Below, in pieces: positions 8,369-21,647 of a DNA stretch of 64,000 nt. Source of the stretch: Microbacterium sp. cx-55 (lineage in GTDB: Bacteria; Actinomycetota; Actinomycetes; Actinomycetales; Microbacteriaceae); NCBI RefSeq assembly GCF_021117345.1, contig NZ_CP088261.1:124001-188000 (forward strand), given 5' to 3'. The position numbers and the translations under genes are program-made. A model generated the notes under the pieces. It saw nothing but the letters and a program-made list of their open reading frames with translations. It was not told the DNA's origin and did not search any database. Position 1 is the first letter of the stretch. Each line of letters opens with the position of its first letter.

Positions 8369-8610
8369 TCACGTGTCGCAATCCGTCGCGCGCGCCGGCC
8401 GATTGCGACACGTGAGCCGGCCCGTTGACCCGCCCGGGTAGCGGGCCCGGGCGGGCGGGCCCGTTCACGTGTCGCAATCCGTCGCCCGCGCTGGCCGATT
8501 GCGACACGTGAGCCGGCCCGTTGAGCCGCCCGGGTGCGGGTTCGGCCGGCGGGCTTGGCACGCTCACGTGTCGTAATCCGTCGCTCGCGCTGGCCGATTG
8601 CGACACCTGA
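8369..8610. repeat. Three copies of the 47-bp palindromic element (cluster 1)
   Basis: Copies lie at 8369-8415, 8465-8511 and 8564-8610, each exactly 47 bp and spaced 96 and 99 bp start to start. Left arm TCACGTGTCGCAATC, right arm GATTGCGACACGTGA, variable 17-bp centre rich in CGCG; the third copy has single changes in each arm (CGTAATC and CACCTGA). They fill the 444-bp gap between the deaminase and phosphatase genes. G-rich GCGGGTGCGGGTGGCG repeats precede them at about 8294-8350. No gene is seen in the gap. Confidence 0.92.
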
Positions 8611-8734
8611 GCATCATCGCCGGGCGCGGGACCGCATCCGTTCACCGGGAGGGCGCACGCCGGTCACCCGGGCGAGGTGAAATCGGTCGGGTGTGCGCTT
8701 TCGCGCGCGCGAACCCCCCGAGGAGACAAGCCAC

Positions 8735-11239
8735 ATGACCCGCATTTCTGCGCGCCGCCGCGCCGCCGCCGTGACGGCGACCGCGCTCGCCGGCGCTCTG
8801 GCCTTCGGCATCGCCGCGCCGGCGCACGCCGCCGGGACCGACCCGATCGCTCCGCATCCTGACGCATGGGGACGGTACTACGTCGACGCGTGGGCCACGA
8901 ACACCACCGCGAACACTTCGCCCGAGACGAACGCGGCGATCGGTCTGCTGACGCCCATGCTCGATTACTGGACGCCCGAGGTGCCGCCGACGGCCGCGTT
9001 CGACGCGAGCGGGCGGTTCATCCCCGACAGCGTCGGCACCGTGAAGAACGCCACCGTGCTGGATGCGAACATCGCCGAGGCCGCGCGGATCACCGCGGCG
9101 CGCACTCCCGAGCAGGCCGCCGCCGCCTACCGCTACGACCGGCGCAACCAGAACTACTCCGCGGTGCAGGGCCTCGGGCCCTGGGCGGATGCGTTCCGCA
9201 CCGGCACGAACGCGGGCACGACCATCCCCGACGAGATCCCGGCCGACGCGACGACGGTCAAATACGACGACAAGGGCAACGCCAACGGAGCGTGGGCCGA
9301 CGAGACCTCGACCTACGGGCCGATGGTCGCGCTCGTGAACCAGTTCCGCAACTCGTCCGCGTCGACCAACCCGTCCAAGGCGTACTACAACTACGCGCGC
9401 CCGTTCCGGTGGAGCACCGACGTGCAGGTGCTGCCGACGCTGATTCCGGCGAAGCAGCCCGACGCCAACGCGCTGAGCGACGGCGGCTACCCCAGCGGCC
9501 ACACGAACGCGGCGTATCTCGCGACCCTGGCGCTGGCGTATGCGGCGCCCGAGCGGTTCCAGGAACTGCTCACCAGCGCGTCCGACATCGGCAACAGCCG
9601 CATCGTCGCCGGAATGCACTCGCCGGGCGACGTGATCGGCGGGCGCATCATGGCGACCGCCGTCGCTGCCGCCGCCCTCAACCAGCCGGCCAACGCCGAC
9701 AAGATGGCGGCCGCGCGGACCGCCGCCGAGGCGCTGCTGGCGACCCCCGGTGTCGGGGCCGACGCCTACGCCGACCACGCCGGCAACGAGAAGCTCTACG
9801 CGGATCGGCTCACCTATGGCCTGCCGCGGGTGGGTGACACGACCCGCCCGGTCGTCGTGCCGAAGGGCGCCGAGGTGCTGCTCGCGTCGCGTCTGCCGTA
9901 CCTCACGGCTGACCAGCGCCGGTGGGTGCTGCAGTCGACGGGGCTGGGCTCCGGCTACGCGCTGCTCGACGACGCCGAAGGATGGGGACGCCTGAACCTG
10001 TACGCGGCGGCCGATGGCTACAGCGCCTTCGACACCGACGTCTCGGTCGACATGGATGCGGCGCAGGGCGGTTTCAGCGCGGCCGACTCGTGGCGGAACG
10101 ACATCGAGGGCGCGGGTTCGCTCACGAAGTCCGGCACCGGTGCGCTCACCCTGACCGGCGACAACACGTTCACCGGCGGCACGACGGTGAACGGCGGCAC
10201 GCTGGCCGCCGCATCCGCCGACGCGCTCGGCACCGGCTTGGTCTCGGTCGAGGGCGGCACGCTCACGGAATCCGCGACGGCGCCCGTGCAGATCGGCGGC
10301 GACCTGACGCTTGCCCCGACCAGCACGCTCGAGCTGACGGTCGAGGGACCTGCGCCCGCGCTCGTCGTGGCGGGCACCGCATCCGTCGACGGAACGGCGA
10401 AGATCTCGTTCGCGAACGGCACGGTGCCGAGCGACGACACCGTCATCGCGACCTTCGGGCGCGTGGGTGCGGGCACGAGCTTCGACGCGGTGCAGGTCGA
10501 CGGCCTGCCAGCCGGGTACACCCCCGCGCTCCGGATCACGGATGGTGCGCTGCACCTCGTGAACACGACGCCCGCCGTCGGGTCGCTGACGGCCGGAACC
10601 CCCGCCGTCGGCGGCACTCCGGTCGTGGGGCAGACCCTGACCGCGACGCCCGGTGCCTGGACGCCGACGCCCGTGACATTCGGGTACCAGTGGTTCCGCG
10701 GCTCCGCCGCGATCGCGGGCGCGACCTCGGCGGACTACACCGTCGGCTTCGCCGATGTGGGCCAGACGCTGAGCGTCGAAGTGACCGGGTCGAAGAGCGG
10801 ATATGTGCCGCAGACCCGGACGGCGACCGCATCCGGAATCGCCACCGCCGTCGTCACGCTCGATGACGCGAGCGTCACCGCGGGCGACCGCGTGACGGTG
10901 TCGGGAGCGGGCTTCGCGCCCGGCGAGACCGTCGGTATCGAGCTGCGATCGACGCCCGTCCAGGTCGGAACGGCCGTCGTCGGACCGACCGGGGCGTTCA
11001 TCGTGAGCATCACGATCCCGGTGAACATCCCGGCCGGGGCGCACACGATCGTGGTGACGGGTGCGACGAGTGCGGTCACCGCATCCGCTCCGCTCACCGT
11101 CGCCGCTGCACCGGGCATCGCCGCGCTCGCCGCCACGGGTGGCACCGCGCCGCTCCTGTTGGTGCCGTTCCTCGCGGGCGGGCTGCTGCTGACGGGCGCG
11201 GCCATGGTCATCGTGCGTCGCCGGATGCGGCGCGCCTGA
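8735..11239 (+). CDS. Secreted PAP2-family phosphatase with PATR-type repeat, Ig-like domains and cell-surface anchor
   Basis: An 834-residue exported protein. GAGGAG lies 10 nt before the ATG, and a signal peptide ends at about AHA (residue 32). The first third is a vanadium-haloperoxidase/PAP2 acid phosphatase: GYPSGHTNAAY holds the catalytic His and SRIVAGMHSPGDVIGGR the second His, with KAYYNYARPFRW as the first motif. About residues 465-510 resemble a passenger-associated transport repeat (GTGALTLTGDNTFTGGTT). Ig-like segments follow (GAWTPTPVTFGYQWFRG). The C terminus has LAATGG, a membrane span and RRRMRR, a sortase-like or membrane-retention signal. It is expected to release phosphate from extracellular organophosphates, possibly nucleotides. 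It is transcribed alone. Confidence 0.87.
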   Translation: MTRISARRRAAAVTATALAGALAFGIAAPAHAAGTDPIAPHPDAWGRYYVDAWATNTTANTSPETNAAIGLLTPMLDYWTPEVPPTAAFDASGRFIPDSVGTVKNATVLDANIAEAARITAARTPEQAAAAYRYDRRNQNYSAVQGLGPWADAFRTGTNAGTTIPDEIPADATTVKYDDKGNANGAWADETSTYGPMVALVNQFRNSSASTNPSKAYYNYARPFRWSTDVQVLPTLIPAKQPDANALSDGGYPSGHTNAAYLATLALAYAAPERFQELLTSASDIGNSRIVAGMHSPGDVIGGRIMATAVAAAALNQPANADKMAAARTAAEALLATPGVGADAYADHAGNEKLYADRLTYGLPRVGDTTRPVVVPKGAEVLLASRLPYLTADQRRWVLQSTGLGSGYALLDDAEGWGRLNLYAAADGYSAFDTDVSVDMDAAQGGFSAADSWRNDIEGAGSLTKSGTGALTLTGDNTFTGGTTVNGGTLAAASADALGTGLVSVEGGTLTESATAPVQIGGDLTLAPTSTLELTVEGPAPALVVAGTASVDGTAKISFANGTVPSDDTVIATFGRVGAGTSFDAVQVDGLPAGYTPALRITDGALHLVNTTPAVGSLTAGTPAVGGTPVVGQTLTATPGAWTPTPVTFGYQWFRGSAAIAGATSADYTVGFADVGQTLSVEVTGSKSGYVPQTRTATASGIATAVVTLDDASVTAGDRVTVSGAGFAPGETVGIELRSTPVQVGTAVVGPTGAFIVSITIPVNIPAGAHTIVVTGATSAVTASAPLTVAAAPGIAALAATGGTAPLLLVPFLAGGLLLTGAAMVIVRRRMRRA

Positions 11240-11246
11240 GCCACTC

Positions 11247-11287
11247 GCGGGCGGGGCTGTGTCGCGCAGCGGCGCGACCCCGCCCGC
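11247..11287 (+). terminator. Terminator-like hairpin after phosphatase gene
   Basis: GCGGGCGGGG at 11247-11256 pairs perfectly with CCCCGCCCGC at 11278-11287, starting 7 bp after the stop codon. There is no T-run, as is common in high-GC actinobacteria. Confidence 0.6.
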
Positions 11288-11489
11288 GGTGTTGTGCGGT
11301 GGTGGATTTCGCGGGCGGGTGTGTAGATGGCGCGGATTTCCGCGCGACGGGATGTCGGTCGGTGGCAAGTCAGTCGCCGAGTTTCGGTCCGATGCGGCGT
11401 AGCGGGGGCGGCCGTGCGGGTCTCCGACACGCGCGTCCGGCAAGTGTCAAGCCCTCGGCCGGTCGCATGCGCGGGTGTGGAGTGTGGGC

Positions 11490-11615
11490 ATGAGTACCGC
11501 AGATCCGCATCCCGCCCCGAACGACCCGACGCTACCTCCGCTGAACGACCCGTTCGAGGAGGATGACGACGCCGACGCGACCGCGACCGGCTCGCACCCG
11601 GCCGCGCTCGCCTGA
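11490..11615 (+). CDS. Possible 41-residue acidic peptide
   Basis: A short frame runs from ATG at 11490 to TGA at 11613-11615. The translation is acidic and Pro-rich (it starts MSTADPHPAPNDPTLPPL and contains FEEDDDADA), unlike the Arg/Ala-rich translations of neighbouring non-coding DNA. There is no clear Shine-Dalgarno, though GTGTGGAGTGTGGGC lies upstream. It could be a remnant of a longer gene. No family is recognised. It sits between the phosphatase terminator and the second cluster of 47-bp palindromes. Confidence 0.25.
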   Translation: MSTADPHPAPNDPTLPPLNDPFEEDDDADATATGSHPAALA

Positions 11616-11709
11616 CGCCTCGCGTCGCGTCGGGCGTCCCCCTCCTCACACCGCTCCGCCCCGCCCGCCCCGCGCCCCGCTCCGGCACGCTCACGTGTCG
11701 CCCGCCCGC

Positions 11710-12045
11710 TCAGGTGTCGCAATGCGTCGGCGACGCCAGCCGATTGCGACACGTGAGCAGCATCTCCTCGCGCTCACGTGGCGCAATCGGTGAGGTGAGG
11801 CGGCGGATTGCGACACGTGAGCATGGGTGCGGGCGCGTTGTCCCGTGCGGCATCCGGCTCAGGCCCCGGCGCGTCGCGCCAGCCGAGGCTCCGGCGCCGC
11901 GCGCCAGCCCGCTTCCGGCGCCGCATCCGCCCGCTCACGTGTCGCAATGCGTCGGCGGCGCCAGCCGATTGGGACACGTGAGCAGCATCTCCACGCACTC
12001 TGGTGACGCAATCGGTGTGGTGGGGCGGCGGATTGCGACACGTGA
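11710..12045. repeat. Four copies of the 47-bp palindromic element (cluster 2)
   Basis: Copies lie at 11710-11756, 11774-11820, 11935-11981 and 11999-12045, each exactly 47 bp. An isolated left arm, TCACGTGTCG, occurs at 11691-11700. They form two pairs with a 64-bp start-to-start offset (11710/11774 and 11935/11999), so a two-copy unit of about 110 bp appears duplicated 225 bp apart. The last copy has a decayed left arm (TCTGGTGACGCAATC) but an intact right arm. They lie in the 1.05-kb gap between the phosphatase and GMC oxidoreductase genes. Confidence 0.92.
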
Positions 12046-12070
12046 GCGTGGCAGCGCGGGGCGCGACCGC

Positions 12071-12290
12071 ACGCGCGACAGCGAACCGCGCGCGACAGCG
12101 AACCGCGCGCGACAGCGAACCGCGCGCGACAGCGAACCGCGCGCGACAGCGAACCGCGCGCGACAGTGCACGGGGAGCGACAGCGCAGCGCACCGGGGAG
12201 CGACAGTGCAGCGCACCGGGAGCGACAGCGCACCGGGAGCGACAGCGCAGCCCGAGCGACAGCGCAGCCCGCGCGACACCGCGCGCGGCG
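12071..12290. repeat. 17-bp tandem repeats abutting GMC gene end
   Basis: About five head-to-tail copies of a 17-bp unit (CGCGCGCGACAGCGAAC) run from about 12071 to 12160. They grade into degenerate copies built on GAGCGACAGCGCA up to about 12290, right beside the stop codon of the minus-strand GMC oxidoreductase at 12293. They are non-coding as far as can be seen. Such arrays can form by slippage and may vary in number between strains. Confidence 0.8.
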
Positions 12291-12292
12291 GG

Positions 12293-13855
12293 TCAGGGCG
12301 CGGTGAGGAGCTCGGCGGCGCGCTCGGCGATCGCCACCGTCGGGGCCTGCGTGTTGCAGGTCGGGATCGACGGCATCACCGAGGCATCTGCGACCCAGAG
12401 GCCCGACAGTCCCCGCACCCGCAGGCCAGGATCCACGACCGCGAGGTCGTCGGTGCCGATGCGCGCCGTGCCCGAGCAGTGGAAGAACGTGCCGATGTTC
12501 TCGCGCACGAACCGCACCTTGTCCGCGTGCGCCAACCCGTGCGGCGGCGTGATCGGGCCCTCCGCGAGCTCGCTGTACGCCTGCGTCGCGACGAGGTCGT
12601 GCACGGCGTCGACCGCCTCGACCATCGCGGCGAGGTCGGTCGGGTCGGCGAGGTAGTTCGGGTGCAGGTCGGCGGCCGCATCCGGATCCGCTGACCGCAC
12701 CCGCACCCATCCGACGCTCCGCGAACGGTACAGCCCGGGCACGATCGCGAACACGCGGCCGCCCGTCAGGTCGTGCGCGGCGTGCAGCTTCTCATCGCCC
12801 CGCGACCCGTGGGCGATGACCGCGTGCAGGTCGGGTCCGGTGTCGGCGTGGGTGCTCCGCCAGTTGAGCATCGCGCCGCCGCCATTGCCGATCACGGGCC
12901 CGAGCGACGCCCGTGCACGGAAGTTCATGCCGAGGATCAGCGGGTGGTCCTGGAAGTTCTCGCCGACGCCCGGCAGGTGATGCCGGGAACGGATGCCGGC
13001 CGCCGCGAGCCGCGTCGCGTCGCCGATGCCGGACAGCTGCAGCAGCCGCGGGGTGTCGAGCGCGCCCGCCGCCAGCACGACCTGCGCGGCGGAGGTCTCG
13101 CGGAGCGTGCCGTCGACGAGGTGCCGGATGCCGGTCACCCGGTCGCCGTCGAGCACGAGGGCGTGCACCGGGCTGCCCACGAGCACGTCGAGGTTCTCTC
13201 GGCCGAGGGCCGGTTCGAGGTATCCGCGGGCGGTGCTCCAGCGTTCGAACGCCCCGTCCTCCCCGACGATCGCGTTGTAATCCGCGTACACGGCGCCCTC
13301 GTTGTCGGCCGCATTGGCGTCCTCGAGCACCGGCAGGCCGCGTTCGGCCGTCGCGGCGATCAGCGCGTCGGCGATGGGATGCACGTCCGCGAGCGGACCG
13401 ACCCGCATCGGACCGTCGAGCCCCCGGTATGCGGGGTCGCCGCCCGGCCGCGCCTCGGAGCGGCGGAAGAAGGGCAGCAGGTCGTCGTAGCCCCAGCCGG
13501 TGGCACCCGCATCCGCCCACGCGTCGTAGTCGGCGCGGTTGCCGCGGTACCAGAGCATCGCGTTCGTGGAGGACGAGCCGCCGAGCACGCGGCCGCGGGG
13601 CATCGCGAGCGCCCGCCCGAGCACGTGCGGCGTGGGAGTGGATCGGTACCCGTAGTCGTACGGGCCGCCGATCATCGCATCCCAGTGCGCCGCGTCGAGC
13701 ACCTCCCGGATGCCGCGATGGTCGGGCCCCGCCTCCACGAGCAGCACGCGCCGCGCCGGATCCTCGGAGAGGCGGGCGGCGAGAACGCATCCCGCCGCGC
13801 CGCCGCCGACGACGAGCACGTCATAGCCGGCGGCGGGCGCGTGCACGATCGGCAT
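12293..13855 (-). CDS. GMC-family FAD-dependent oxidoreductase (choline dehydrogenase-like)
   Basis: A 520-residue flavoprotein, the last gene of the seven-gene operon. The FAD Rossmann motif is VVGGGAAGCVLAARLSE near residue 14. GMC signature 1 lies around RGRVLGGSSSTNAMLWYRG and signature 2 in GALDTPRLLQLSGIG. The catalytic His is in FFHCSGTARIG; the second position is in SIPTCNTQAPTVAIAE. GMC enzymes oxidise an alcohol to an aldehyde or ketone. The ATG at 13855 overlaps the previous gene's stop by one base (TGATG), so translation is probably coupled. An alcohol-oxidising step fits the aldehyde dehydrogenase in the same operon. Confidence 0.88.
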   Translation of the reverse strand: MPIVHAPAAGYDVLVVGGGAAGCVLAARLSEDPARRVLLVEAGPDHRGIREVLDAAHWDAMIGGPYDYGYRSTPTPHVLGRALAMPRGRVLGGSSSTNAMLWYRGNRADYDAWADAGATGWGYDDLLPFFRRSEARPGGDPAYRGLDGPMRVGPLADVHPIADALIAATAERGLPVLEDANAADNEGAVYADYNAIVGEDGAFERWSTARGYLEPALGRENLDVLVGSPVHALVLDGDRVTGIRHLVDGTLRETSAAQVVLAAGALDTPRLLQLSGIGDATRLAAAGIRSRHHLPGVGENFQDHPLILGMNFRARASLGPVIGNGGGAMLNWRSTHADTGPDLHAVIAHGSRGDEKLHAAHDLTGGRVFAIVPGLYRSRSVGWVRVRSADPDAAADLHPNYLADPTDLAAMVEAVDAVHDLVATQAYSELAEGPITPPHGLAHADKVRFVRENIGTFFHCSGTARIGTDDLAVVDPGLRVRGLSGLWVADASVMPSIPTCNTQAPTVAIAERAAELLTAP

Positions 13856-14469
13856 CAGTTGTGCTCGCTCGGTCCCATGATGGTTATGCCCTCGGTCTTC
13901 TCGACGTGGCGCACGAAGATGTACTTGTCTTCGCGGCCGTCGGAGTGCTTGCGCCCGATGCCGGGCTCGAGGATGCCGTCGGTCTTCGCGACGACGATGT
14001 AGGGCTCGGATGCGGCGAGCCCGGCCGCGCAGTGCGCGTCGAACTCTTCCAGGGTCTCGGCGGTGAACGCCTTCTCGACTCCCGCGCCGCGAGCGATCGC
14101 GGCGAGGTCGACGCGCCCCTTCGCCGTGTGGGTCGCGGGCCCTCCGATCGACTGGTACTGCTCGTTGTCCCAGACCACCACGAACAGGTTCGCGGGCCGC
14201 TCGTTGCCGAGGGTCGCGAGGATGCCGAGGTTGAACAGGAGTCCGCCGTCGGTGTCGAGCGACACGATGCGCCGGTGCGGCAGACCGACCGCGAGCCCGA
14301 AGGCTTCCGGGGTCACGCAGCCGAGCTGCTGCTGGAAGAGGCTCGCGTCCCGCATGTGCGGTGCCGCGTTGTACCACTCGTCGACGGCGCCGCCGAGGGA
14401 GAGGATGACGAGCTCGTCGGAGAGCCGGGCGCCCAGCATCCGCATGGCCTCGAATCTGCTGTAACTCAT
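13855..14469 (-). CDS. ThDP-dependent decarboxylase, beta subunit (sulfopyruvate/phosphonopyruvate decarboxylase-like)
   Basis: A 204-residue protein matching the C-terminal, cofactor-binding domain of thiamin-diphosphate enzymes. The ThDP/Mg motif appears as LDTDGGLLFNLGILATL, with the Asp-Gly and Asn expected for pyrophosphate and metal binding. It shares its split architecture with the two-subunit sulfopyruvate decarboxylase (ComDE) and the AepY-type phosphonopyruvate decarboxylases, where the partner supplies the N-terminal PYR domain. The partner is the next gene upstream in transcription, 43 bp away. The expected chemistry is decarboxylation of a 2-oxoacid to an aldehyde; the actual acid is unknown. 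Confidence 0.85.
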   Translation of the reverse strand: MSYSRFEAMRMLGARLSDELVILSLGGAVDEWYNAAPHMRDASLFQQQLGCVTPEAFGLAVGLPHRRIVSLDTDGGLLFNLGILATLGNERPANLFVVVWDNEQYQSIGGPATHTAKGRVDLAAIARGAGVEKAFTAETLEEFDAHCAAGLAASEPYIVVAKTDGILEPGIGRKHSDGREDKYIFVRHVEKTEGITIMGPSEHN

Positions 14470-14512
14470 CGGTTCGCCCCTTCCGGGCCGTGCGTGCGGG
14501 GTGCGTGGATGT

Positions 14513-15013
14513 TCATCGGACCAGACCTCCGCCGAGGACGATGGCCGCGTGGTGGTACGAGGCGTAGGCGGTCTCGTAGGCGTCGACCACGGCCTGCTCG
14601 ATCTCGTCGACCTCGCGGACGATCCGGTACGGCGTGCGGAGCGTCTGCAGGAGCGGCTCCATCGTGATCCCGTGCGGGATCGCCCACCAGTTGTTCTCGC
14701 CGAGCTCGCCCCGGTAGCTCATGATCATGACGACCGGGATGCCGGCGCCGAACCCCATCCGGGCGAGGTGCTCGGTGGCGGCGCGGAGGCCGGAGTTCTC
14801 CATCACGAGCACGGCACGTTTGCCGGAGAGGAACACGCCGCCGGCGATCGCGGCACCTTCGCCCTCGTTCGTGACGGGGATGGTGCGGATGTCGGCATCC
14901 GCATCCAGCGCCGGATAGAGCTCCTTCAGGAGCGAATCCGGCAGGTAGGTGGCGACGCTGACCCCGGCCCGTTTCAGGCCCCGGATCACCGCCTCGACGG
15001 CGTCAGCTCTCAT
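14513..15013 (-). CDS. ThDP-dependent decarboxylase, alpha subunit (PYR domain)
   Basis: A 166-residue protein equivalent to the N-terminal PYR half of a ThDP decarboxylase. The catalytic Glu is probably in TNEGEGAAIAGGVFLSG, and PVVMIMSYRGELGENNWW resembles ComD/AepY alpha subunits. ATG at 15013 is preferred because AGAGAG then sits about 7 nt upstream; an ATG two codons earlier (15019) would leave no room for it. The start overlaps the monooxygenase gene by 11 bp. With the beta subunit it should form an alpha/beta enzyme with active sites at the subunit interface. Confidence 0.83.
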   Translation of the reverse strand: MRADAVEAVIRGLKRAGVSVATYLPDSLLKELYPALDADADIRTIPVTNEGEGAAIAGGVFLSGKRAVLVMENSGLRAATEHLARMGFGAGIPVVMIMSYRGELGENNWWAIPHGITMEPLLQTLRTPYRIVREVDEIEQAVVDAYETAYASYHHAAIVLGGGLVR

Positions 15014-16415
15014 CGGCATCTCTCTCTGTGTGCGTGGGGATGATCGGGTCGTCGGCCGCGCGGGCGGCGAGGCGGTGGGCGCGGTGCGTGGGAGCGAGCC
15101 GCGGGGAGCCCGAGAACCGCTCGCGGAGGGTCTGGCCCTCGGGGCGGCCCACCCGACCGCGCTCCGCGAGGATCGGCACGACCAGCTCGATGAACGCGCG
15201 ATACGCCCCCGGCCCACCGAATGTCGGCTCCAGCATGATGCCGTCGATGCCCGAGCCGTCGACGATCGCTTCGATCTCATCGGCGACCTCCTCGGGGGAG
15301 CCGGTGATCTGGAACCCACGGATCGCCTTCGTGCGGAACTGGTCGAGGATCTCGCCCACCCGCATGTCGGGGTTCTGCCGCGCATATCGCTGCACGAGCG
15401 TCTGGCCGAGGTCGGTCTTCAGGTCGACGACCCGCGACTCGGGGTCGAGTCCGGTGAGGTCGAGCCCCGTGATGCCGGCGAACATGACGGCCGCGTCGTC
15501 CAGGCCCAGCAGCGCCTCGTACTCCGCGCGCAGCGCCTCGGCCTCGGCGCGGGTCGGGGCGACCGTCACCGTCAGGCCGGTGACCACGGCGACGTCCTCC
15601 GGATGGCGTCCGCCCTGCACGGCCTGCTCCCGGATGTCGCGAACGTGCGCGGCCGCCGATGCGATGGTCTGGCCCTGGATGAAGACGGCCTCCGCGTTCC
15701 GCGCGGCGTAGGCCCGGCCGCGATCGGACGTGCCCGCCTGGAACAGCACGGGGGTGCGCTGCGGGGTGGGGGGCACCGCGAAGATCCCGCGCGAGCGCTG
15801 GTGCGCGTCGGCCACCTCGACCCGGTGCAGTTTCGCCGGGTCGGCGAACACGCCGCGGTCGCGGTCGCGCACCTCGGCGTCGTCGTCCCAGCTGTGCTCC
15901 CAGTAGCGCAGGCACGTGTCGAGAAAGGAGTCGGCGGCGTCGTACTTCGCGTCGTGCGACAGCTGCTCCGTCACACCGAACAGCTCGTCGGTGGTCGACT
16001 GCGAGCTGCCCGTGACGACGTTCCAGCCGATGCGTCCGCCGGTCAACCGGTCGAGCGTGGCGAACCGGCGGGCGGTGCCGTACGGGCGCTCCACCGTGGT
16101 CGGCGACGTCACGACGAACCCGAGGGTCTCGGTCTCGCGGGCGAGCGCGGCGATCGCGAGCATCGGGTCGAGCGCGGGGAACTGGATGCCGTGCGCCGCG
16201 ACCTCGTCGGGCATCCGCCCGTCCAGCGTCGCGTACCCGTAGGTGTCGGCGAAGAACAGGAAGTCGAACCCCGCGGCGTCGAGCTCTTTCGCGAGGTCGA
16301 CCCAGTAATCGAGTCGGTCCCAGTCGTCTCCTCGGCCATCCGGATGCGTCCACGTCGGCATCCCGTTGGAGGGGTTCATCATCTCGAACACCCCGAGGCG
16401 GATTCGTTTGCTCAC
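15003..16415 (-). CDS. LLM-class FMN-dependent monooxygenase (NtaA/SnaA/DszA family)
   Basis: A 470-residue bacterial-luciferase-like TIM-barrel enzyme. Family marks are FFADTYGYATLDG near the N terminus, RIGWNVVTGSSQ in the middle and VLFQAGTSDRGRAYAARNAEAVF, which binds FMN phosphate in NtaA-type enzymes. These two-component monooxygenases use FMNH2 from a separate reductase to hydroxylate or cleave C-N or C-S bonds; no flavin reductase gene is visible nearby. Its ATG overlaps the end of the aldehyde dehydrogenase gene by 4 bp. In the operon it is the likely oxygen-activating step after the amidohydrolase. Confidence 0.88.
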   Translation of the reverse strand: MSKRIRLGVFEMMNPSNGMPTWTHPDGRGDDWDRLDYWVDLAKELDAAGFDFLFFADTYGYATLDGRMPDEVAAHGIQFPALDPMLAIAALARETETLGFVVTSPTTVERPYGTARRFATLDRLTGGRIGWNVVTGSSQSTTDELFGVTEQLSHDAKYDAADSFLDTCLRYWEHSWDDDAEVRDRDRGVFADPAKLHRVEVADAHQRSRGIFAVPPTPQRTPVLFQAGTSDRGRAYAARNAEAVFIQGQTIASAAAHVRDIREQAVQGGRHPEDVAVVTGLTVTVAPTRAEAEALRAEYEALLGLDDAAVMFAGITGLDLTGLDPESRVVDLKTDLGQTLVQRYARQNPDMRVGEILDQFRTKAIRGFQITGSPEEVADEIEAIVDGSGIDGIMLEPTFGGPGAYRAFIELVVPILAERGRVGRPEGQTLRERFSGSPRLAPTHRAHRLAARAADDPIIPTHTERDADES

Positions 16416-17917
16416 AGGACCATCACCACCGATTTCGTCTCCAGATAGTTCTCCAGCCCCTGCGGGCCGTTCTCGTAGCCCCAGCCCGACTCCTTATGGC
16501 CGCCCTTGGGCAGCTCGGGTCCGAGGAAGGAATGGCAGTTCACCCATACCGTGCCCGCCTGCAGTCGTGCGGCGATCCGGTGGCCGTTGCTGAGGCCCTC
16601 GGTCCAGACGCTGGCGGCGAGGCCGTAGTCGCTGTCGTTCGCCCAGCCGACGACCTCGTCGAGGTCATCGAAGGGTGTGACGACGGCGACCGGGCCGAAG
16701 ATCTCTTCGCGCATGAGGCGCATGTCGGCGGTGACGTCGGTGAGGACGGTCGGGGTGAAGAACGTGCCGGCCGCGCCGTCGCGCTCGCCGCCGGTTACGA
16801 CGGTCACCCCTTCGGCCACGCCCTCGTCGACGAACGCGGCGACGCGTTCGGCCTGCGCGGCGCTGACCAGCGGGCCGAGGTCGGTCGCGGCGCCCAGGCC
16901 GTGCCCGAGACGCAGCCTGCGCCCGGCGTCGGCCATGCCGCCGACGACCTCGTCGTACACGTCGCGGTGCGCGTAGATGCGGGCGCTCGCGACGCAGACC
17001 TGGCCACCGTTGTCGAAGATGCCGCGGGAGACGCCCTCGATAGCGGCCGGCAGATCCGCATCCGGCATGATGATCGACGGCGACTTGCCGCCGAGCTCGA
17101 GGGTGAGCCGGGCGAGGCGGGAGGATGCGGACTGCACGAGCCGCTTTCCGACGGCCGTCGACCCCGTGAACGCGATCTTCGCGACGCCGCGGTGCTCGAC
17201 GAGCGCCTGACCTGCCTCCGCGCCGAACCCGGTGAGGATGTTGACGACGCCAGCCGGAACACCCGCTTCCTGCAGCAGGCGCCCGAGGTAGAGGGCCGTG
17301 AGCGAGGTGTTCTCGGCCGGTTTCAGCACGATCGTGCACCCGGCGGCGAGAGCGGGTGCGAGCTTCATCGCCGTCATGATCATGGGCGAGTTCCACGGCA
17401 CGATCGCCGCGACCACACCGACCGGTTCGCGGCGCGTGTACGCGAACACCTCCTTGCCCTCGGGCGTGCGCGAGAGCGAGGTCGGGATCGTCTCGCCGAG
17501 GATCTTGGTCGGCCACCCCGCGTAGTACCGGAACTGGTTGATGGCGGCGGGGATCTCACCGAACCGCGAGGTGCGCAGGCTCTTGCCCTGGTCGAGCGTC
17601 TCGAGCTCGGCGAGGGCGTCGAGGTGCTCCTCCATGACGTCGGCGATCCGCCAGAGCAGACGCGAGCGGTCGGCGGGCCGCATCGCGGACCATGCCGGCA
17701 GAGCCTCGGATGCGGCGGCGACGGCGCGGTCGGCGTCGGTCGCGTCACCGCGGGCGATGCGCGCGAGCTCTTCGCCGGTCGCCGGGTCGAGCGTCGCGAA
17801 ATCGGCCCCGCTCGCGGCGGCGATCCAGCGCCCGCCGATGAGCAGGCGTCCGGGATCGTCGTCGAGGAAGCGCTGGGCGCGTTCACCGAGCGGTGCGCGA
17901 TCGAGGTCGATCGTCAT
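16412..17917 (-). CDS. Aldehyde dehydrogenase (NAD(P)-dependent)
   Basis: A 501-residue ALDH, full length for the family. The general-base Glu is in LELGGKSP (about residue 274) and the nucleophilic Cys in NGGQVCVAS (about residue 308). The NAD-binding segment FTGSTAVGKRL and the oxyanion Asn in VPWNSP are present. It oxidises an aldehyde to the acid in the cytosol. It follows the amidohydrolase by 30 bp and overlaps the monooxygenase by 4 bp. The aldehyde could come from the ThDP decarboxylase or the GMC oxidoreductase of the same operon, which makes a decarboxylate-then-oxidise or alcohol-to-acid sequence plausible. Confidence 0.92.
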   Translation of the reverse strand: MTIDLDRAPLGERAQRFLDDDPGRLLIGGRWIAAASGADFATLDPATGEELARIARGDATDADRAVAAASEALPAWSAMRPADRSRLLWRIADVMEEHLDALAELETLDQGKSLRTSRFGEIPAAINQFRYYAGWPTKILGETIPTSLSRTPEGKEVFAYTRREPVGVVAAIVPWNSPMIMTAMKLAPALAAGCTIVLKPAENTSLTALYLGRLLQEAGVPAGVVNILTGFGAEAGQALVEHRGVAKIAFTGSTAVGKRLVQSASSRLARLTLELGGKSPSIIMPDADLPAAIEGVSRGIFDNGGQVCVASARIYAHRDVYDEVVGGMADAGRRLRLGHGLGAATDLGPLVSAAQAERVAAFVDEGVAEGVTVVTGGERDGAAGTFFTPTVLTDVTADMRLMREEIFGPVAVVTPFDDLDEVVGWANDSDYGLAASVWTEGLSNGHRIAARLQAGTVWVNCHSFLGPELPKGGHKESGWGYENGPQGLENYLETKSVVMVL

Positions 17918-17947
17918 GGTGTGGGCCTCTCGTGAGGGTGGGGATGA

Positions 17948-19321
17948 TCAGTGGGGGAAGAGCCCGGTGAGTTCGTCCTGCGCGGCGATCCAGTCGGCGC
18001 GCCGGGCGAAGAGGCCGGGAACGAGGTGGCGGACGCGGGCGATCAGCTCCTGCAGATCGGCGCCCACGAGCTGCCCGTCCCGCACGACGATCGAACCCGC
18101 CACGACCGTCATGTCGACGTCGGAGCCGCGCACCGCGTGGACGAGGTTGTGGTGGATGTTGGCGTGGCCGCCCTCCGGCAGCAGCGGTGTCATCCGGGGG
18201 GTGTCGGTGCGGACGGCGACGAAGTCGGCCTTCCGCCCCACCGTGATCGCGCCGAGTTCATCGCCGCGACCGATCGCCGCCGCCCCGCCCCGGGTCGCCA
18301 TGTGCAGAACCTGCCACGAATCCATCGCGGCCGCATCCATCGTCCGGAGCTTGCCGAGCAGCGACGCGACCTTCATCTCCTCGAACATGTCGAGGTTGTT
18401 GTTCTCCTTCTCGCCGTCGGTGCCGAGCCCCACGGCGACGCCCGCCGCGAGCATCTCGGCGATCGGGGCCATCCCGCTGGCGAGCTTCATGTTCGAGACC
18501 GGGTTGTGCGAGACGCCCACGCCGCGCGCGGCGATCAGGTCGATCTCGTCCTGATCGAGCCACACCGCGTGCGCGATCATCGCGCGCGGAACGTCGAAGA
18601 AGCCGAGCCGCTCGAGCGCGACCATCGGCCGCGCGCCGTGCCGGTCGCGGAAGTCGGCGATCTCGATCTCGGACTCGCTGCAGTGTGTGTACAGGCCGGT
18701 GCCGTACTCACGCGCCATGCCGATCGCCCGCTGCTGGCCGGCCGCATCCGCGTAGAACGGATGCTCGAGCCCCACCCACGGCATGATGCGACCGCCGGCG
18801 GCGCCCGTCCACTCCCGCAGCATGCGCTCGTTGTCGTCGAGCGTGTCGAAGTAGTCGAACTCGGGGTGCTCGCCGACGTAGTTGACGCTGACGAGTCGGT
18901 TTCCGAGGGCGGATGCGGCGCGCGCCGCGCCATCCATGAACCGCCACATGTCGACCACCGTGGTCGTTCCCGACAGGAGTCCCTCCGCGTAGCAGAGCCA
19001 CGCGGCGGCCTCGGCCTCGTCGGGACGCAGCACCCGGTGCATCGGGTCGATGTGGATGCGGAGCCACTCCCAGACGGGCAGGTGCTCGGCCGTGCCGCGC
19101 AGCATCCCGGAATGGTGGTGGGCGTTGATCAGTCCCGGCATCAGGACCCGGTTCGGCAGGTCGACGTGCTCGGCCTCGGGATGGCGCGCGAGCAGGTCGG
19201 CGCGCGGGCCGATGTCGGTGATCGTGTCGCCGATGACGAGCACGGCGGTTTCGGTGAGCACCGTGCGGGCGTCGTCCATCGTGACGAGGATGTCGGGGGT
19301 GAACAGCTGGGTGTGACTCAT
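17948..19321 (-). CDS. Amidohydrolase (MTA/SAH deaminase, TrzA/AtzB-like family)
   Basis: A 457-residue metal-dependent hydrolase. ATG at 19321 is chosen because MSHTQLFTPDILVTMDD matches the usual first beta-strand. Metal ligands: HxH at His68/His70 in GLINAHHHSGM, His in THCSESEIEIA, His in IAHAVWLDQDEIDLIA and Asp in GLGTDGEKENNN; SHNPVSNMKLASG is the substrate-loop motif. Relatives deaminate or dechlorinate purines, triazines and 5'-deoxyadenosines. It follows the binding-protein gene by 75 bp and should catalyse the first intracellular hydrolysis in this operon. The truncated gene at the left edge belongs to a neighbouring branch. Confidence 0.88.
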   Translation of the reverse strand: MSHTQLFTPDILVTMDDARTVLTETAVLVIGDTITDIGPRADLLARHPEAEHVDLPNRVLMPGLINAHHHSGMLRGTAEHLPVWEWLRIHIDPMHRVLRPDEAEAAAWLCYAEGLLSGTTTVVDMWRFMDGAARAASALGNRLVSVNYVGEHPEFDYFDTLDDNERMLREWTGAAGGRIMPWVGLEHPFYADAAGQQRAIGMAREYGTGLYTHCSESEIEIADFRDRHGARPMVALERLGFFDVPRAMIAHAVWLDQDEIDLIAARGVGVSHNPVSNMKLASGMAPIAEMLAAGVAVGLGTDGEKENNNLDMFEEMKVASLLGKLRTMDAAAMDSWQVLHMATRGGAAAIGRGDELGAITVGRKADFVAVRTDTPRMTPLLPEGGHANIHHNLVHAVRGSDVDMTVVAGSIVVRDGQLVGADLQELIARVRHLVPGLFARRADWIAAQDELTGLFPH

Positions 19322-19396
19322 GGTGCCTCGGGGGAGTTGCGGTGGTGCGGGCGGATCCGCTGTGCGCACGGCCGAGCGGATCCGCCGTGCGGGGGA

Positions 19397-20461
19397 TCAG
19401 CTCTGTGCGGTGAGGAGGTCGGGGTTCTCGTCGTAGAGCTCGGTCAGCAGGCTGAGGTCGAACAGGTCCGTGACGTCCAGGTCGTAGCCGGCGGCGGCGA
19501 GGCTCTGGATCGTCTGCTGCTGCAGGTCGTCCGAGATGGTGAAGAGGCCGTTCTCGGCGGTCTCGGCGGAGGTCACGAGCAGTTCGGCCTGCGCCGTCGC
19601 GCTCGCGAGGGACCCCTCGAGCGTGAGTCCGAGGTCGGCGCCGTACTGGTCGACAGCCAGGGTCGCGCCCTCGGACGGGTCGGCGACCGCATCCTGCCAT
19701 CCGAGGATCTCCGCGTGCAGGAAGTCCTTCAGGGCGTCGCGGTGCGCGGCGATGGTCTCGTCGGTCGCCGTCACGACGTGACCGACGAAGGGCAGGTTGT
19801 TGTCGGCGAAGAGCAGGTCGGTGACGGGCGTGCCCGAGAGCTCGATCGTGGTGGACTGGCTCGTCACGAACGCGATCATGCCGTCGACCTCGCCGGTCGT
19901 GAGCGGAGCCGGGTCGTACTGGATCGGCACGATGTCGACGTCGGCCTGGTCGATGTCGTTCGCCGCGAGGAACGCGTTGAAGACGGCGCGGTTGGAATCC
20001 TGCACGCCGATCTTCTTGCCGACCATCTGCTCGGGCGTGGTGATGTTCGCGCCCTCGGTCAGGGAGGCGATCGTGAAGGGATTCTTCTGGAACGTCGCAC
20101 CGATGACCTTGAGGGGGGCCGACTCGTTCGCGACCGCAGCGCCCACCGACAGGGCGTCGGTCAGCGACACGTCGGCGGTGCCGCTGAGGAGCTCGGCGAT
20201 TCCGCTGGAGGGACCGGGGATCAGGTTCACCGCGGAGAACCCGGCGTCTGCGAAGTAGCCCTCGTGCTCGGCGATGAACTCGCCCGACCACTCCTCGTTG
20301 AGGATCCAGGCGAGCTGCACGTTGAGTTCGCCGTTGCCGGCGTCGGTTGCCGCGTCGCTCGCGGGGGTCGCGGAGCTCGTACCGGCGCAGGCGCTCAGGG
20401 CGAGGACTCCCGCGGCGAGGATGACGGCCGCGCGGATGCGGGTGAAGGATCGGGATGCCAT
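19397..20461 (-). CDS. NMT1/THI5-like substrate-binding lipoprotein, first operon gene
   Basis: A 354-residue lipoprotein with lipobox LSAC and the NMT1 signature VQLAWILNEEWSGEF, followed by GYFADAGF and GPSSGIAELLSGTADVSL. It resembles the binding protein at 1737-2813 along its whole length. Unlike that gene, no ATPase or permease is next to it; it may share the ATPase and permeases at 2843-5362, or its partners lie elsewhere. It heads the minus-strand operon and has a 19-bp dyad 84 bp upstream of its start. It probably captures the compound that the operon breaks down. Confidence 0.9.
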   Translation of the reverse strand: MASRSFTRIRAAVILAAGVLALSACAGTSSATPASDAATDAGNGELNVQLAWILNEEWSGEFIAEHEGYFADAGFSAVNLIPGPSSGIAELLSGTADVSLTDALSVGAAVANESAPLKVIGATFQKNPFTIASLTEGANITTPEQMVGKKIGVQDSNRAVFNAFLAANDIDQADVDIVPIQYDPAPLTTGEVDGMIAFVTSQSTTIELSGTPVTDLLFADNNLPFVGHVVTATDETIAAHRDALKDFLHAEILGWQDAVADPSEGATLAVDQYGADLGLTLEGSLASATAQAELLVTSAETAENGLFTISDDLQQQTIQSLAAAGYDLDVTDLFDLSLLTELYDENPDLLTAQS

Positions 20462-20544
20462 GACGATTCTCTCTGGTGCGCCGGGTGCGGCCGGTGCCGG
20501 TCGCGCTCGAGGGGCGCGTCAGAGTGATCGTATGGAGTAATCAT

Positions 20545-20563
20545 TGATTGCACATGGCAATCA
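20545..20563. promoter_or_regulatory. Perfect dyad, candidate operator of the seven-gene operon
   Basis: TGATTGC-ACATG-GCAATCA has perfect 7-bp arms in an otherwise GC-rich gap between the XRE-cupin gene and the first operon gene. XRE-family regulators typically bind such dyads. The AT-rich context (GTATGGAGTAATCAT just before) suggests a promoter at the same place. No second exact copy was noticed in the window. Confidence 0.6.
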
Positions 20564-20611
20564 CGTTTCGGCGGTGTTACTCCTCGCTGAAGATGACCGG
20601 GTCTGGCGCGA

Positions 20612-21247
20612 TCAGCCGCCGAACGCGTACGAGAGCAGCATCCGCGCGCGTCCTTCGCCGTGCACCGACCACCGGTTGCGGATGGCGCCGGGGTGCGCGA
20701 TCGCGTCGCCGGCGGCGAGAGTCCACGTGCCGTGGCCCTCGATGTCGACGTTGATGGCCCCCTCGATCACGTAGACCGTGAGCTCGCCGTCGGACTGGAA
20801 CCAGTCGCCCATGTACTGACCGGGCTCGACGATGTACTCCTGCACGGTCGCGTGGCGCGCGGTGCCCGAGGAGAGCACGCGGGTCGTGGCGGAATCCGGG
20901 TTGTCGGCGATCGGCACCCAGACGCCCTCATCGTGTCGCGAGACGTGCACGAGCTCGGGTTCTTCGAGCGTGGGCAAGAGCGCCGAAGGCGACAGCTCGA
21001 GGGCCTTCGCGAGTCGGTACAGCGTGACCAGCGAGGGCATGGTCTGCCCGCTCTCGATCTGGCTGAGGAACGGCTGGCTGATGTCGGATGCGGTCGCGAG
21101 CGCGCGCATCGACAGCTTCTTCGCGGCGCGTGCCTCACGGATGGCCCGGCCGAGCGAGACGCCGATCTGGGCTTCGCCCGTCGCGGCGGATGCGGTCGCG
21201 GCGTCGGAGGGCGCGGCGGATGCGGTCGCGGCGTCGGAGGGAGTCAC
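20612..21247 (-). CDS. XRE-family regulator with cupin domain
   Basis: A 211-residue regulator. The GTG at 21247 is supported by a -10-like TAGGGT exactly 6 nt upstream (21254-21259), which implies a leaderless mRNA. The N terminus carries a degenerate repeat (TPSDAATASAAPSDAATASA) encoded by duplicated DNA. The HTH lies in LATASDISQPFLSQIESG. The cupin part has EYIVEPGQYMGDWFQSDGE and DAIAHPGAIRNRW. It resembles the regulator at 6597-7253 in layout. It lies directly upstream of the catabolic operon on the same strand, with the dyad at 20545-20563 between them, so it is the prime candidate for its regulator and may respond to a pathway compound bound in the cupin. Confidence 0.9.
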   Translation of the reverse strand: MTPSDAATASAAPSDAATASAATGEAQIGVSLGRAIREARAAKKLSMRALATASDISQPFLSQIESGQTMPSLVTLYRLAKALELSPSALLPTLEEPELVHVSRHDEGVWVPIADNPDSATTRVLSSGTARHATVQEYIVEPGQYMGDWFQSDGELTVYVIEGAINVDIEGHGTWTLAAGDAIAHPGAIRNRWSVHGEGRARMLLSYAFGG

Positions 21248-21284
21248 GCGCCCACCCTAATCCTGGCCGGCGCAGCCCCCGCAC

Positions 21285-21647
21285 TCACGTGTCGCAATCC
21301 GCCCGCCCCGGCGGCAGTTTGCGCCACGTGAGCGGGTGTCTTGTGGGCGGGTGTCTTGTGGCTCACGTGTCGCGATCGGTCGTGTCGCGTGGCGGTTTGC
21401 GCCACGTGAGCGTCGGACCACCCGGCTCACGTGTCGCGATCGGTCGTGTCGCGCGGCAGTTTGCGCCACGTGAGCGGGGTGTCTTGTGGGCGGGTGTCGC
21501 ACTCCGCCCACGTCGACGGCCGAGCGCGCCGCGTGCTCACGTGTCGCAATCGGCCCACCCCGGCGGCAGTTTGCGCAACGTGAGCGTCGGACCACCCGGC
21601 TCACGTGTCGCAATCGGTCGTGTCACGCGGCAGTTTGCGCCACGTGA
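21285..21647. repeat. Five copies of the 47-bp palindromic element (cluster 3)
   Basis: Copies lie at 21285-21331, 21363-21409, 21427-21473, 21537-21583 and 21601-21647, all exactly 47 bp. Here the right arm is mostly TTTGCGCCACGTGA (one copy GCGCAACGTGA) instead of GATTGCGACACGTGA, a distinct subfamily. Copies 21363/21427 and 21537/21601 are again pairs 64 bp apart, like cluster 2. They occupy most of the 485-bp gap between the XRE-cupin and molybdenum hydroxylase genes. After the last copy, short GGGCGTCGGCGGAGC repeats run to about 21720. Confidence 0.92.

What the first reader, a model, noticed from the sequence alone, without database searches (positions are those of the whole stretch)
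8369..21647. Twelve copies of an exactly 47-bp palindromic element confined to three gaps of the catabolic region
Copies start at 8369, 8465, 8564, 11710, 11774, 11935, 11999, 21285, 21363, 21427, 21537 and 21601; each spans 47 bp. Arms are TCACGTGTCGCAATC and GATTGCGACACGTGA, or a subfamily with TTTGCGCCACGTGA, around a variable 17-bp centre. Fixed length with a variable centre argues for selection or copying as a unit. Both ends carry CACGTG. Pairs 64 bp apart recur in clusters 2 and 3. None was seen outside 8-22 kb of this window. They could be REP/MITE-like elements, or binding sites for a pathway regulator or nucleoid protein.
Basis: seen in the sequence. Interest (0 to 1): 0.75.

Follow-up and report, generated by a model that had tools for sequence, protein, structure and literature searches.

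The report
Palindromic repeats paired with a nuclease
The repeated DNA palindrome belongs to a family of about a hundred scattered copies in this bacterium that also brackets a nuclease-like gene on both sides, and many related genes are bracketed by palindromes of their own, which looks like a repeat-plus-enzyme system similar to the known REP elements but with an unrelated enzyme.

Summary
In detail: 12 copies, none expected by chance. They are not local: the genome holds 86-97 pattern matches in 26 intergenic clusters beside genes of diverse function. No RAYT-type transposase (PF01797) was found. Between clusters the arms are conserved, the centres much less.

The key finding lies outside the window. 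A 315-aa gene with a Vsr/DUF559-type nuclease domain has element arrays on both sides. In the best homologue of 30 genus genomes (own included) the two flanks match each other in 29; windows further out 0 of 30; ftsZ 1 of 29. Of 40 small relatives across the class, 23-24 match. Flank similarity follows protein relatedness. The palindrome around a second own gene has 25 copies here and 0 in 7 relatives; that of a third was not seen elsewhere in the tenth of the genome held.

Best reading: each palindrome is the binding, perhaps copying, site of its adjacent nuclease, a REP/RAYT-like layout with an unrelated enzyme. Binding, cutting and movement are inferred, not shown.

The parts
8369..8415 (.). 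element copy 1 (cluster 1, between two + strand genes)
   Evidence: 0 mismatches
8465..8511 (.). element copy 2
   Evidence: 0 mismatches
8564..8610 (.). element copy 3
   Evidence: 2 mismatches
11691..11701 (.). lone half-site TCACGTGTCGC beside cluster 2
   Evidence: read
11710..11756 (.). element copy 4 (cluster 2, convergent gap)
   Evidence: 2 mismatches
11774..11820 (.). element copy 5, 64 bp after copy 4
   Evidence: 0 mismatches
11935..11981 (.). element copy 6 (copies 4-5 and 6-7 repeat at 225 bp, 90% alike)
   Evidence: family D4; 2 mismatches
11999..12045 (.). element copy 7, 64 bp after copy 6
   Evidence: 2 mismatches
21285..21331 (.). element copy 8 (cluster 3, 37 bp before the start of the XRE-cupin-like gene on the - strand)
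   Evidence: 1 mismatch
21363..21409 (.). element copy 9
   Evidence: 2 mismatches
21427..21473 (.). element copy 10, 64 bp after copy 9
   Evidence: 2 mismatches
21537..21583 (.). element copy 11
   Evidence: 2 mismatches
21601..21647 (.). element copy 12, 64 bp after copy 11
   Evidence: 1 mismatch. The candidate partner gene lies outside the window, at genome C1:274497-275444 (+), between clusters C1:274137-274382 and C1:275460-275756.

Best explanation
The 47-bp palindromes are dispersed copies of the recognition site of one DNA-binding nuclease encoded in the same genome (315 aa, C1:274497-275444), whose gene is bracketed by the same palindromes. Its C-terminus is of the Vsr type (DUF559/MTES_1575); its N-terminus is probably an AbiEi-like DNA-binding region, to judge by relatives. 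It most likely binds the two arms of the dyad as a pair of subunits. The family spread as non-autonomous copies, possibly because the enzyme cuts at or near a palindrome and repair copies it, and then grew locally by tandem duplication of 64-bp and larger units. This is the logic of REP elements and RAYT transposases with an unrelated enzyme. Shown: dispersed copies, conserved arms, bracketing of this gene, flank-to-flank matching around most of its relatives, similarity of palindromes tracking protein relatedness, and a second gene-palindrome pair whose palindrome is also dispersed. Inferred: binding, cleavage, copying.
For: Genome-wide intergenic clusters. Arrays on both sides of the gene here and in G104, G017 and G319; those genomes hold 20, 26 and 25 dispersed copies of the same arm type (for G319 only four of the 25 were seen). 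Flank match (450 bp up against 450 bp down, z>5): 29 of 30 genus loci, own included; windows 500-950 bp out 0 of 30; up-flank of one genome against down-flank of another 5 of 30; ftsZ 1 of 29; own-genome genes 2 of 135, one of them this gene. Class-wide small DUF559 genes 24 of 40, 23 of 40 on repeat, far 1 of 40, crossed 1 of 40. Plasmid-borne homologues 4 of 5. Palindrome groups labelled by eye need 13 changes on the protein tree (minimum 11; shuffled mean 21.8, as low in 0 of 200); relabelled, 9 (minimum 9; mean 16.4; 0 of 200). Without labels, cross-side flank similarity correlates with protein identity (rho 0.39; 0.27 for pairs under 60% identity; each reached in 0 of 300 permutations). 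Second own family: 25 copies, 3 of them at its gene, and 0 in 7 relatives. E215, D247, E258, H264 and others invariant in 18 homologues. AbiEi binds two 23-bp inverted repeats 3 bp apart (PMC7319586, passages), about the size of this dyad.
Against: No binding or cleavage data and no captured movement. In G283 and G327 the dispersed 47-bp families do not match the palindromes of the DUF559 genes fetched there. The repeat of a third own gene (C1:881436) was not seen as a dispersed family in the 327 kb held. 16-17 of 40 class loci show no flank match, and of the 24 that do only 8 list a palindrome scoring 11 or more on both sides. In the genus set such palindromes are on both sides in 16 of 30, one side in 10, neither in 4, and five of the 29 matches are modest (z 5.7-6.9). 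Chance bracketing happens: a tilS-like gene lies between two copies of the second family. 0 of 4397 between-cluster pairs are 90% alike in the centre, so no sign of recent dispersal. AbiEi similarity of this exact protein is not significant. 27 of 366 genus genomes show no homologue.
Confidence: 0.6

Rival explanations
1. Operators: the protein is an autoregulator that binds inverted repeats at its own promoter, as AbiEi antitoxins do, and the dispersed copies are sites of a wider regulon or of nucleoid-like binding. No cutting or copying is involved.
For: AbiEi and Rv2827c bind inverted repeats in their promoters (PMC7319586, passages). Palindromes lie roughly 30-330 bp upstream of the start codon. 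Arms are conserved while centres drift, as for binding sites.
Against: Matching palindromes also follow the stop codon, in several loci within 100 bp. Clusters are few in divergent gaps, where promoters lie (3 of 26; other gaps 11 of 58), and many in convergent ones (12 of 26; 9 of 58). Neighbouring genes are of diverse function. The putative nuclease residues are invariant.
Confidence: 0.2
2. Hairpins kept for their fold (terminators or mRNA-end stabilisers), mobilised by something else or not at all.
For: Strong single-strand folds (z -4.3 to -7.3 for the five copies folded). Preference for convergent gaps.
Against: No compensatory pairing among 96 copies; pairs 8/40 and 16/32 pair less often than chance (27 against 42.0; 8 against 29.7). 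Downstream consensus is G+C-rich (the terminator scan was not run). No Rfam match up to E 0.1. Does not explain gene-specific palindromes around different DUF559 genes.
Confidence: 0.1
3. Ordinary REP/MITE family mobilised by an unseen transposase; the DUF559 gene is bracketed only because its surroundings tolerate insertions.
For: Dispersed palindromes can bracket other genes by chance (tilS-like gene). Only PF01797 was sought as a transposase family. Orphan dispersed families in G283 and G327.
Against: Different DUF559 genes of one genome carry different palindromes, in many species, while far and crossed controls are low. Only 1 of 135 tested own genes has this element on both sides.
Confidence: 0.1

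Closest known systems
REP/REPIN elements with RAYT (REP-associated tyrosine) transposases
   Same: Extragenic palindromes in many copies, clusters of repeats duplicated together with their flanks; gene flanked by two repeats; several such genes per genome each with its own repeat; repeat and protein thought to co-evolve (PMC2817692, passages; PMC3116915, passages; PMC3733652, passages).
   Different: No Y1/HUH transposase found; no GTAG or CGTC tag at the conserved ends; 47-51 bp rather than 20-40 bp; partner is a Vsr-type DUF559 protein.
EDxHD (I-Bth0305I) homing endonucleases
   Same: Weak profile match of the C-terminal domain to 3r3p 'Mobile intron protein' (E 0.15); I-Bth0305I dimerises on a target of nearly 60 bp (PMC3943268, passages).
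   Different: Free-standing gene between intergenic arrays; many target-like copies in the genome; the match is weak. That 3r3p is I-Bth0305I is recalled.
AbiE type IV toxin-antitoxin regulators (AbiEi)
   Same: N-terminal region of a relative matches AbiEi models (L135, E 3e-9); AbiEi binds two 23-bp inverted repeats 3 bp apart.
   Different: Joined to a nuclease-type domain; palindromes on both sides of the gene and dispersed. The own protein gives no AbiEi match.
Large MTES_1575-type HEPN/Vsr proteins
   Same: The name-giving Vsr-REase domain comes from Microbacterium testaceum MTES_1575 (PMC3710099, passages).
   Different: MTES_1575 runs past residue 2100 with transglutaminase, helicase and wHTH regions; the proteins here have about 300 aa.

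Membership tests
REP/RAYT | Extragenic palindromic repeat in high copy | tested here: met
   86-97 pattern matches; 26 clusters, 0 overlapping a gene of my own gene caller
REP/RAYT | GTAG or CGTC tag at one end | tested here: not met
   Conserved flanks are GC...GC; no tag in the column counts
REP/RAYT | Y1 (IS200/IS605-like) transposase gene in the genome | tested here: not met
   PF01797: 0 matches at E 0.001; 5 of 14 control genomes ring
REP/RAYT | Cognate gene bracketed by the repeats | tested here: met
   Met by a DUF559-type gene, not by a RAYT
REP/RAYT | Repeat is excised or copied by the enzyme | not testable with these tools
   No population reads or assay
MITE | Terminal inverted repeats of a transposase-bearing parent, with target duplication | tested here: inconclusive
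   ftsQ-ftsZ gap is about 410-430 bp longer here than in G327 and G082, by the array; no clean empty site aligned, no duplication read
EDxHD homing endonuclease | Vsr-like catalytic domain | tested here: inconclusive
   3hrl E 0.002, 3r3p E 0.15; no structure model made
EDxHD homing endonuclease | Carried in an intron or intein | tested here: not met
   By position: free-standing gene between intergenic arrays; no intron search was run
AbiE toxin-antitoxin | AbiEii (nucleotidyltransferase) toxin gene next door | not tested
   Neighbour genes were not scanned for it specifically
Pathway-regulator operator | Sites confined to one pathway | tested here: not met
   26 clusters beside genes of diverse function; 20 of 50 flanking genes scanned, 4 of them without a family

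The most novel reading that the evidence does not exclude
Actinomycetes carry a large, undescribed class of repeat-enzyme pairs: small AbiEi-DUF559 nuclease genes are each bracketed by a private palindrome, recognise it, and drive its spread through the genome. The class arose independently of REP/RAYT and uses a Vsr-type nuclease instead of an HUH transposase.
Probability: 0.45. Interest if true: 0.88.

Novelty: new variant of a known kind. Interest (0 to 1): 0.77.

Why it matters
It would explain where many species-specific palindromic repeats of high-GC genomes come from, suggest a role for a common family of unknown nucleases, and provide many natural enzyme-site pairs in which recognition of long DNA sites can be read from co-divergence. 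It would also show that the REP/RAYT strategy arose more than once. In the open-access library, the listings for DUF559 (12 of 12 papers shown), DUF559 with palindrom* (2 of 2), MTES_1575 and similar terms (9 of 9), palindromic repeats with Vsr, nuclease genes or Microbacterium (20 of 183, 10 of 19 and 0 of 0) and REP terms with actinobacterial names (20 of 247 and 12 of 554) showed no description of this pairing. Most of those papers were seen as titles and abstract starts only; subscription papers were not searchable.

Tried and rejected
Rejected: local duplication only; RAYT partner; pathway regulon; known RNA family; hairpin kept by compensatory change.

Led nowhere: a scan of the species-genome collection with exact relaxed arms gave one stretch, in Bifidobacterium jacchi, 46 bp, probably chance (the own genome is left out there). 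Viral contigs with the protein alignment gave no relative. The 30 loci supplied by the class search (L183-L212) are mostly large helicase-size proteins and were not analysed; I picked 40 of the other listed matches by hand (open frame up to about 520 aa; one is from the own genus, one from the own family; the list itself was cut). mis-oriented several loci and is superseded. (strict arms, a drawn sample, 0 of 58 others) would have suggested a species-private repeat; with looser arms corrected that. In the paralogue control, 23 of 24 loci were counted (L143 too short); 8 of 23 exceeded z 5, and on reading ten of the loci I saw palindromes of their own in or near the flanks, so this is not a clean negative control. 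I took two second-family copies around C1:258 kb for a second gene unit; the gene between them looks like tilS. In one search the label of G051 was doubtful (one search shows TCxCCTGTC-type arms there) and the two TCxCCTGTC groups and TTCRCCCGCG were not single clades (4, 3 and 2 changes); one search repeats the count with G051 moved and those arms merged.

Gene names clpC, ftsQ, ftsZ, topoisomerase, tilS and XRE-cupin were given by eye or taken from the finding, not from a family search. No call names the genus or class of the window; 'actinomycete' is inferred from the named homologues.
Full report
OBSERVATION. The 12 copies are real and at the given places; 100 shuffles of the window give none. 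The genome (one contig of 3,271,299 bases; the window is C1:124001-188000) has 91 matches to one pattern, 86 to a stricter and 97 to a looser one, with 0 for the backward control. I took stretches around the clusters listed and found 96 copies with up to 5 arm mismatches in 26 clusters; by my own gene caller 0 of 26 clusters overlap a gene. Two further copies of 46 bp are visible in the ftsQ-ftsZ gap (own sequence), so these counts are lower bounds.

ANATOMY. The dyad reads about GC-TCACGTGKCGCAATCNGYCG-N7-CNRCNGATTGCGMCACGTGA-GC. T6, C9, G39, G46 and A47 are invariant in 96 copies. Many clusters hold pairs exactly 64 bp apart, and larger blocks are repeated in place. Pairs of copies from different clusters are on average 86% alike in the arms and 56% in the centre (letter-shuffled centres 41%); 0 of 4397 such pairs reach 90% in the centre, against 31 of 163 pairs within clusters. 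So copies multiplied locally by duplication, there is no sign of recent dispersal, and the arms are held by something that reads their sequence. The arms do not co-vary: no symmetric position pairs clearly more often than in shuffles, and 8/40 (27 against 42.0 expected) and 16/32 (8 against 29.7) pair less often; with one copy per cluster the direction is the same (0.28 against 0.45; 0.11 against 0.33). The five copies folded as single strands still fold strongly.

PLACEMENT. Convergent, divergent and same-direction gaps hold 12, 3 and 11 clusters, against 9, 11 and 38 for other gaps of at least 150 bp in the same stretches (convergent against the rest, Fisher p 0.005). dnaA is at C1:521; 19 of 26 clusters lie in the origin half (post hoc; KS p 0.024). 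Twenty of 50 distinct flanking genes were scanned against Pfam; 16 matched a family, among them PEPCK, LigD, GntR and ABC-transporter types, with no common theme. In the ftsQ-ftsZ gap the array here is missing in G327 and G082.

RELATIVES. Own-type arms were found in 0 of 58 other sampled genus genomes and in one stretch, likely chance, of the species-genome collection. With looser arms 156 of 366 genus genomes (own included) have a match, mostly 1-3, a level like the backward control; five others stand out: G327 14, G283 13, G319 8, G104 7, G017 6. With the middle base of the arm freed (TCACNTG) and 2 mismatches they have 16, 28, 25, 20 and 26 copies, control 0. G104 and G017 read about TCACCTGTCRCGAAGYGCCG-N7-..., and G283 has other arms but again pairs 64 bp apart. 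One architecture therefore exists with lineage-specific arms.

THE GENE. Between clusters C1:274137-274382 and C1:275460-275756 lies a 315-aa gene with an MTES_1575/DUF559 domain (DUF559 above its Pfam cut-off, MTES_1575 just below). Of 31 PF18741 matches in six genomes, 30 became loci; elements of the TCNCSTG type were found in 4 of the 30, and these are the four homologues of this gene in own, G104, G017 and G319. In G283 and G327 the homologue is bracketed by quite different palindromes. Homologues occur in 339 of 366 genus genomes. The search supplied 30 loci, the best match of the 30 best genomes, own included. I compared the 450 bp before the start with the 450 bp after the stop: 29 of 30 have z>5, median 18.1, again 29 of 30; five of the 29 are modest (z 5.7-6.9) and G240 fails (2.3). 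A palindrome scoring 11 or more was listed on both sides in 16 of 30, on one side in 10, on neither in 4. Controls: windows 500-950 bp out 0 of 30; up-flank of one genome against down-flank of another 5 of 30; ftsZ 1 of 29; own-genome genes of 200-500 aa 2 of 135, one of them this gene. By single linkage of the outer flanks, 23 (up) and 24 (down) of the 30 share a neighbourhood and the rest lie elsewhere, so most look like vertical orthologues whose palindromes have changed.

GENERALITY. Other DUF559 genes carry palindromes of their own. In the own genome the four small PF18741 genes have four different ones: C1:274497, the domain matches at C1:881436 and C1:3154049, and C1:837959, where the downstream copy is only a half (by eye); the fifth match is part of a long helicase-like frame. 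Forty small genes chosen by hand from the class-wide list give 24 of 40 with z>5, 23 of 40 on repeat, with 1 of 40 far and 1 of 40 crossed; z measures flank similarity, and only 8 of the 24 list palindromes scoring 11 or more on both sides. Five plasmid-borne homologues in named actinomycetes give 4 of 5, for example Arthrobacter sp. ERGS1:01 WP_054009319.1 and Tsukamurella tyrosinosolvens WP_170181035.1; Nonomuraea does not match. Two more fetched genes (G283 C70, G327 C68) have matching palindromes on both sides, by eye.

CO-DIVERGENCE AND A SECOND FAMILY. With palindrome types labelled by eye before the tree was seen, 12 groups need 13 changes on the 30-protein tree (minimum 11; shuffled mean 21.8; 0 of 200 as low). 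The two largest groups are not single clades (4 and 3 changes) and one pair is no better than chance. With one doubtful label moved and related arms merged, 10 groups need 9 changes, the minimum (shuffled mean 16.4; 0 of 200). Without labels, similarity between the up-flank of one locus and the down-flank of another rises with protein identity (rho 0.39, 435 pairs; 0.27 for 404 pairs under 60% identity; 0 of 300 permutations reach either). The idea predicts that palindromes of other own DUF559 genes may be dispersed. For the gene at C1:3154049 three copies away from it were in the DNA already held, and the genome has 25 copies, 3 of them at the gene, with 0 in seven relatives and control 0. 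For the gene at C1:881436 the short patterns tried were confined to its own locus but for one 10-base match. A tilS-like gene is bracketed by two second-family copies, so bracketing alone can be chance.

PROTEIN. In 18 aligned homologues E215, D247, E258, H264, D267, Q270, W271 and D274 are invariant; that they form the active site is inference. Profile matches to solved structures are 3hrl 'Endonuclease-Like Protein' (E 0.002) and 3r3p 'Mobile intron protein' (E 0.15). The N-terminus matches AbiEi models in relatives only. MTES_1575 was described as a Vsr-type REase domain from Microbacterium testaceum (PMC3710099, passages).

MECHANISM AND LIMITS. AbiEi binds two 23-bp inverted repeats 3 bp apart (PMC7319586, passages); two such half-sites make 49 bp, close to this dyad. 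The EDxHD nuclease I-Bth0305I dimerises on nearly 60 bp (PMC3943268, passages). I therefore commit to: the adjacent protein binds its palindrome as a pair (about 0.8), and cuts it in a way that once spread copies (about 0.5). Against this stand the orphan dispersed families of G283 and G327, the class loci without a match, the third own gene, the absence of recent dispersal, and the lack of any assay. REP/RAYT papers describe the same layout with an unrelated enzyme (passages). The mended counts did not change my odds.

Noticed in passing
window 12061-12280: 17-bp tandem repeat (CGACAGCGAACCGCGCG-like) directly after cluster 2, up to the 3' end of the next gene.
   Followed up: no
genome C1, 25 places (e.g. 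257599, 1118796, 1987083, 3154471): Second palindrome family of 68 bp (GCGAGGNGATNTGCC-N38-GGCANATCNCCTCGC) that brackets the DUF559 gene at C1:3154049; a tilS-like gene lies between two copies at 257.6 and 258.9 kb.
   Followed up: partly
L153-L182 and L213-L252, within 150 bp upstream of the DUF559 start: Motif TCC(A/C)CAG or its complement in 19 of 30 genus loci and 12 of 40 class loci, against 8 of 243 own-genome genes.
   Followed up: partly
own elements, positions 8/40 and 16/32 of the 47-mer: These symmetric pairs form Watson-Crick pairs less often than chance, as if a perfect hairpin were avoided.
   Followed up: partly
L146 (G319), downstream of the DUF559 gene: Long tandem array of a TTTTGGCGAGTCGCC-bearing unit that shares sequence with the upstream palindrome.
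   Followed up: no
genome C1: Clusters concentrate in the origin half (19 of 26), none within about 130 kb of dnaA.
   Followed up: partly
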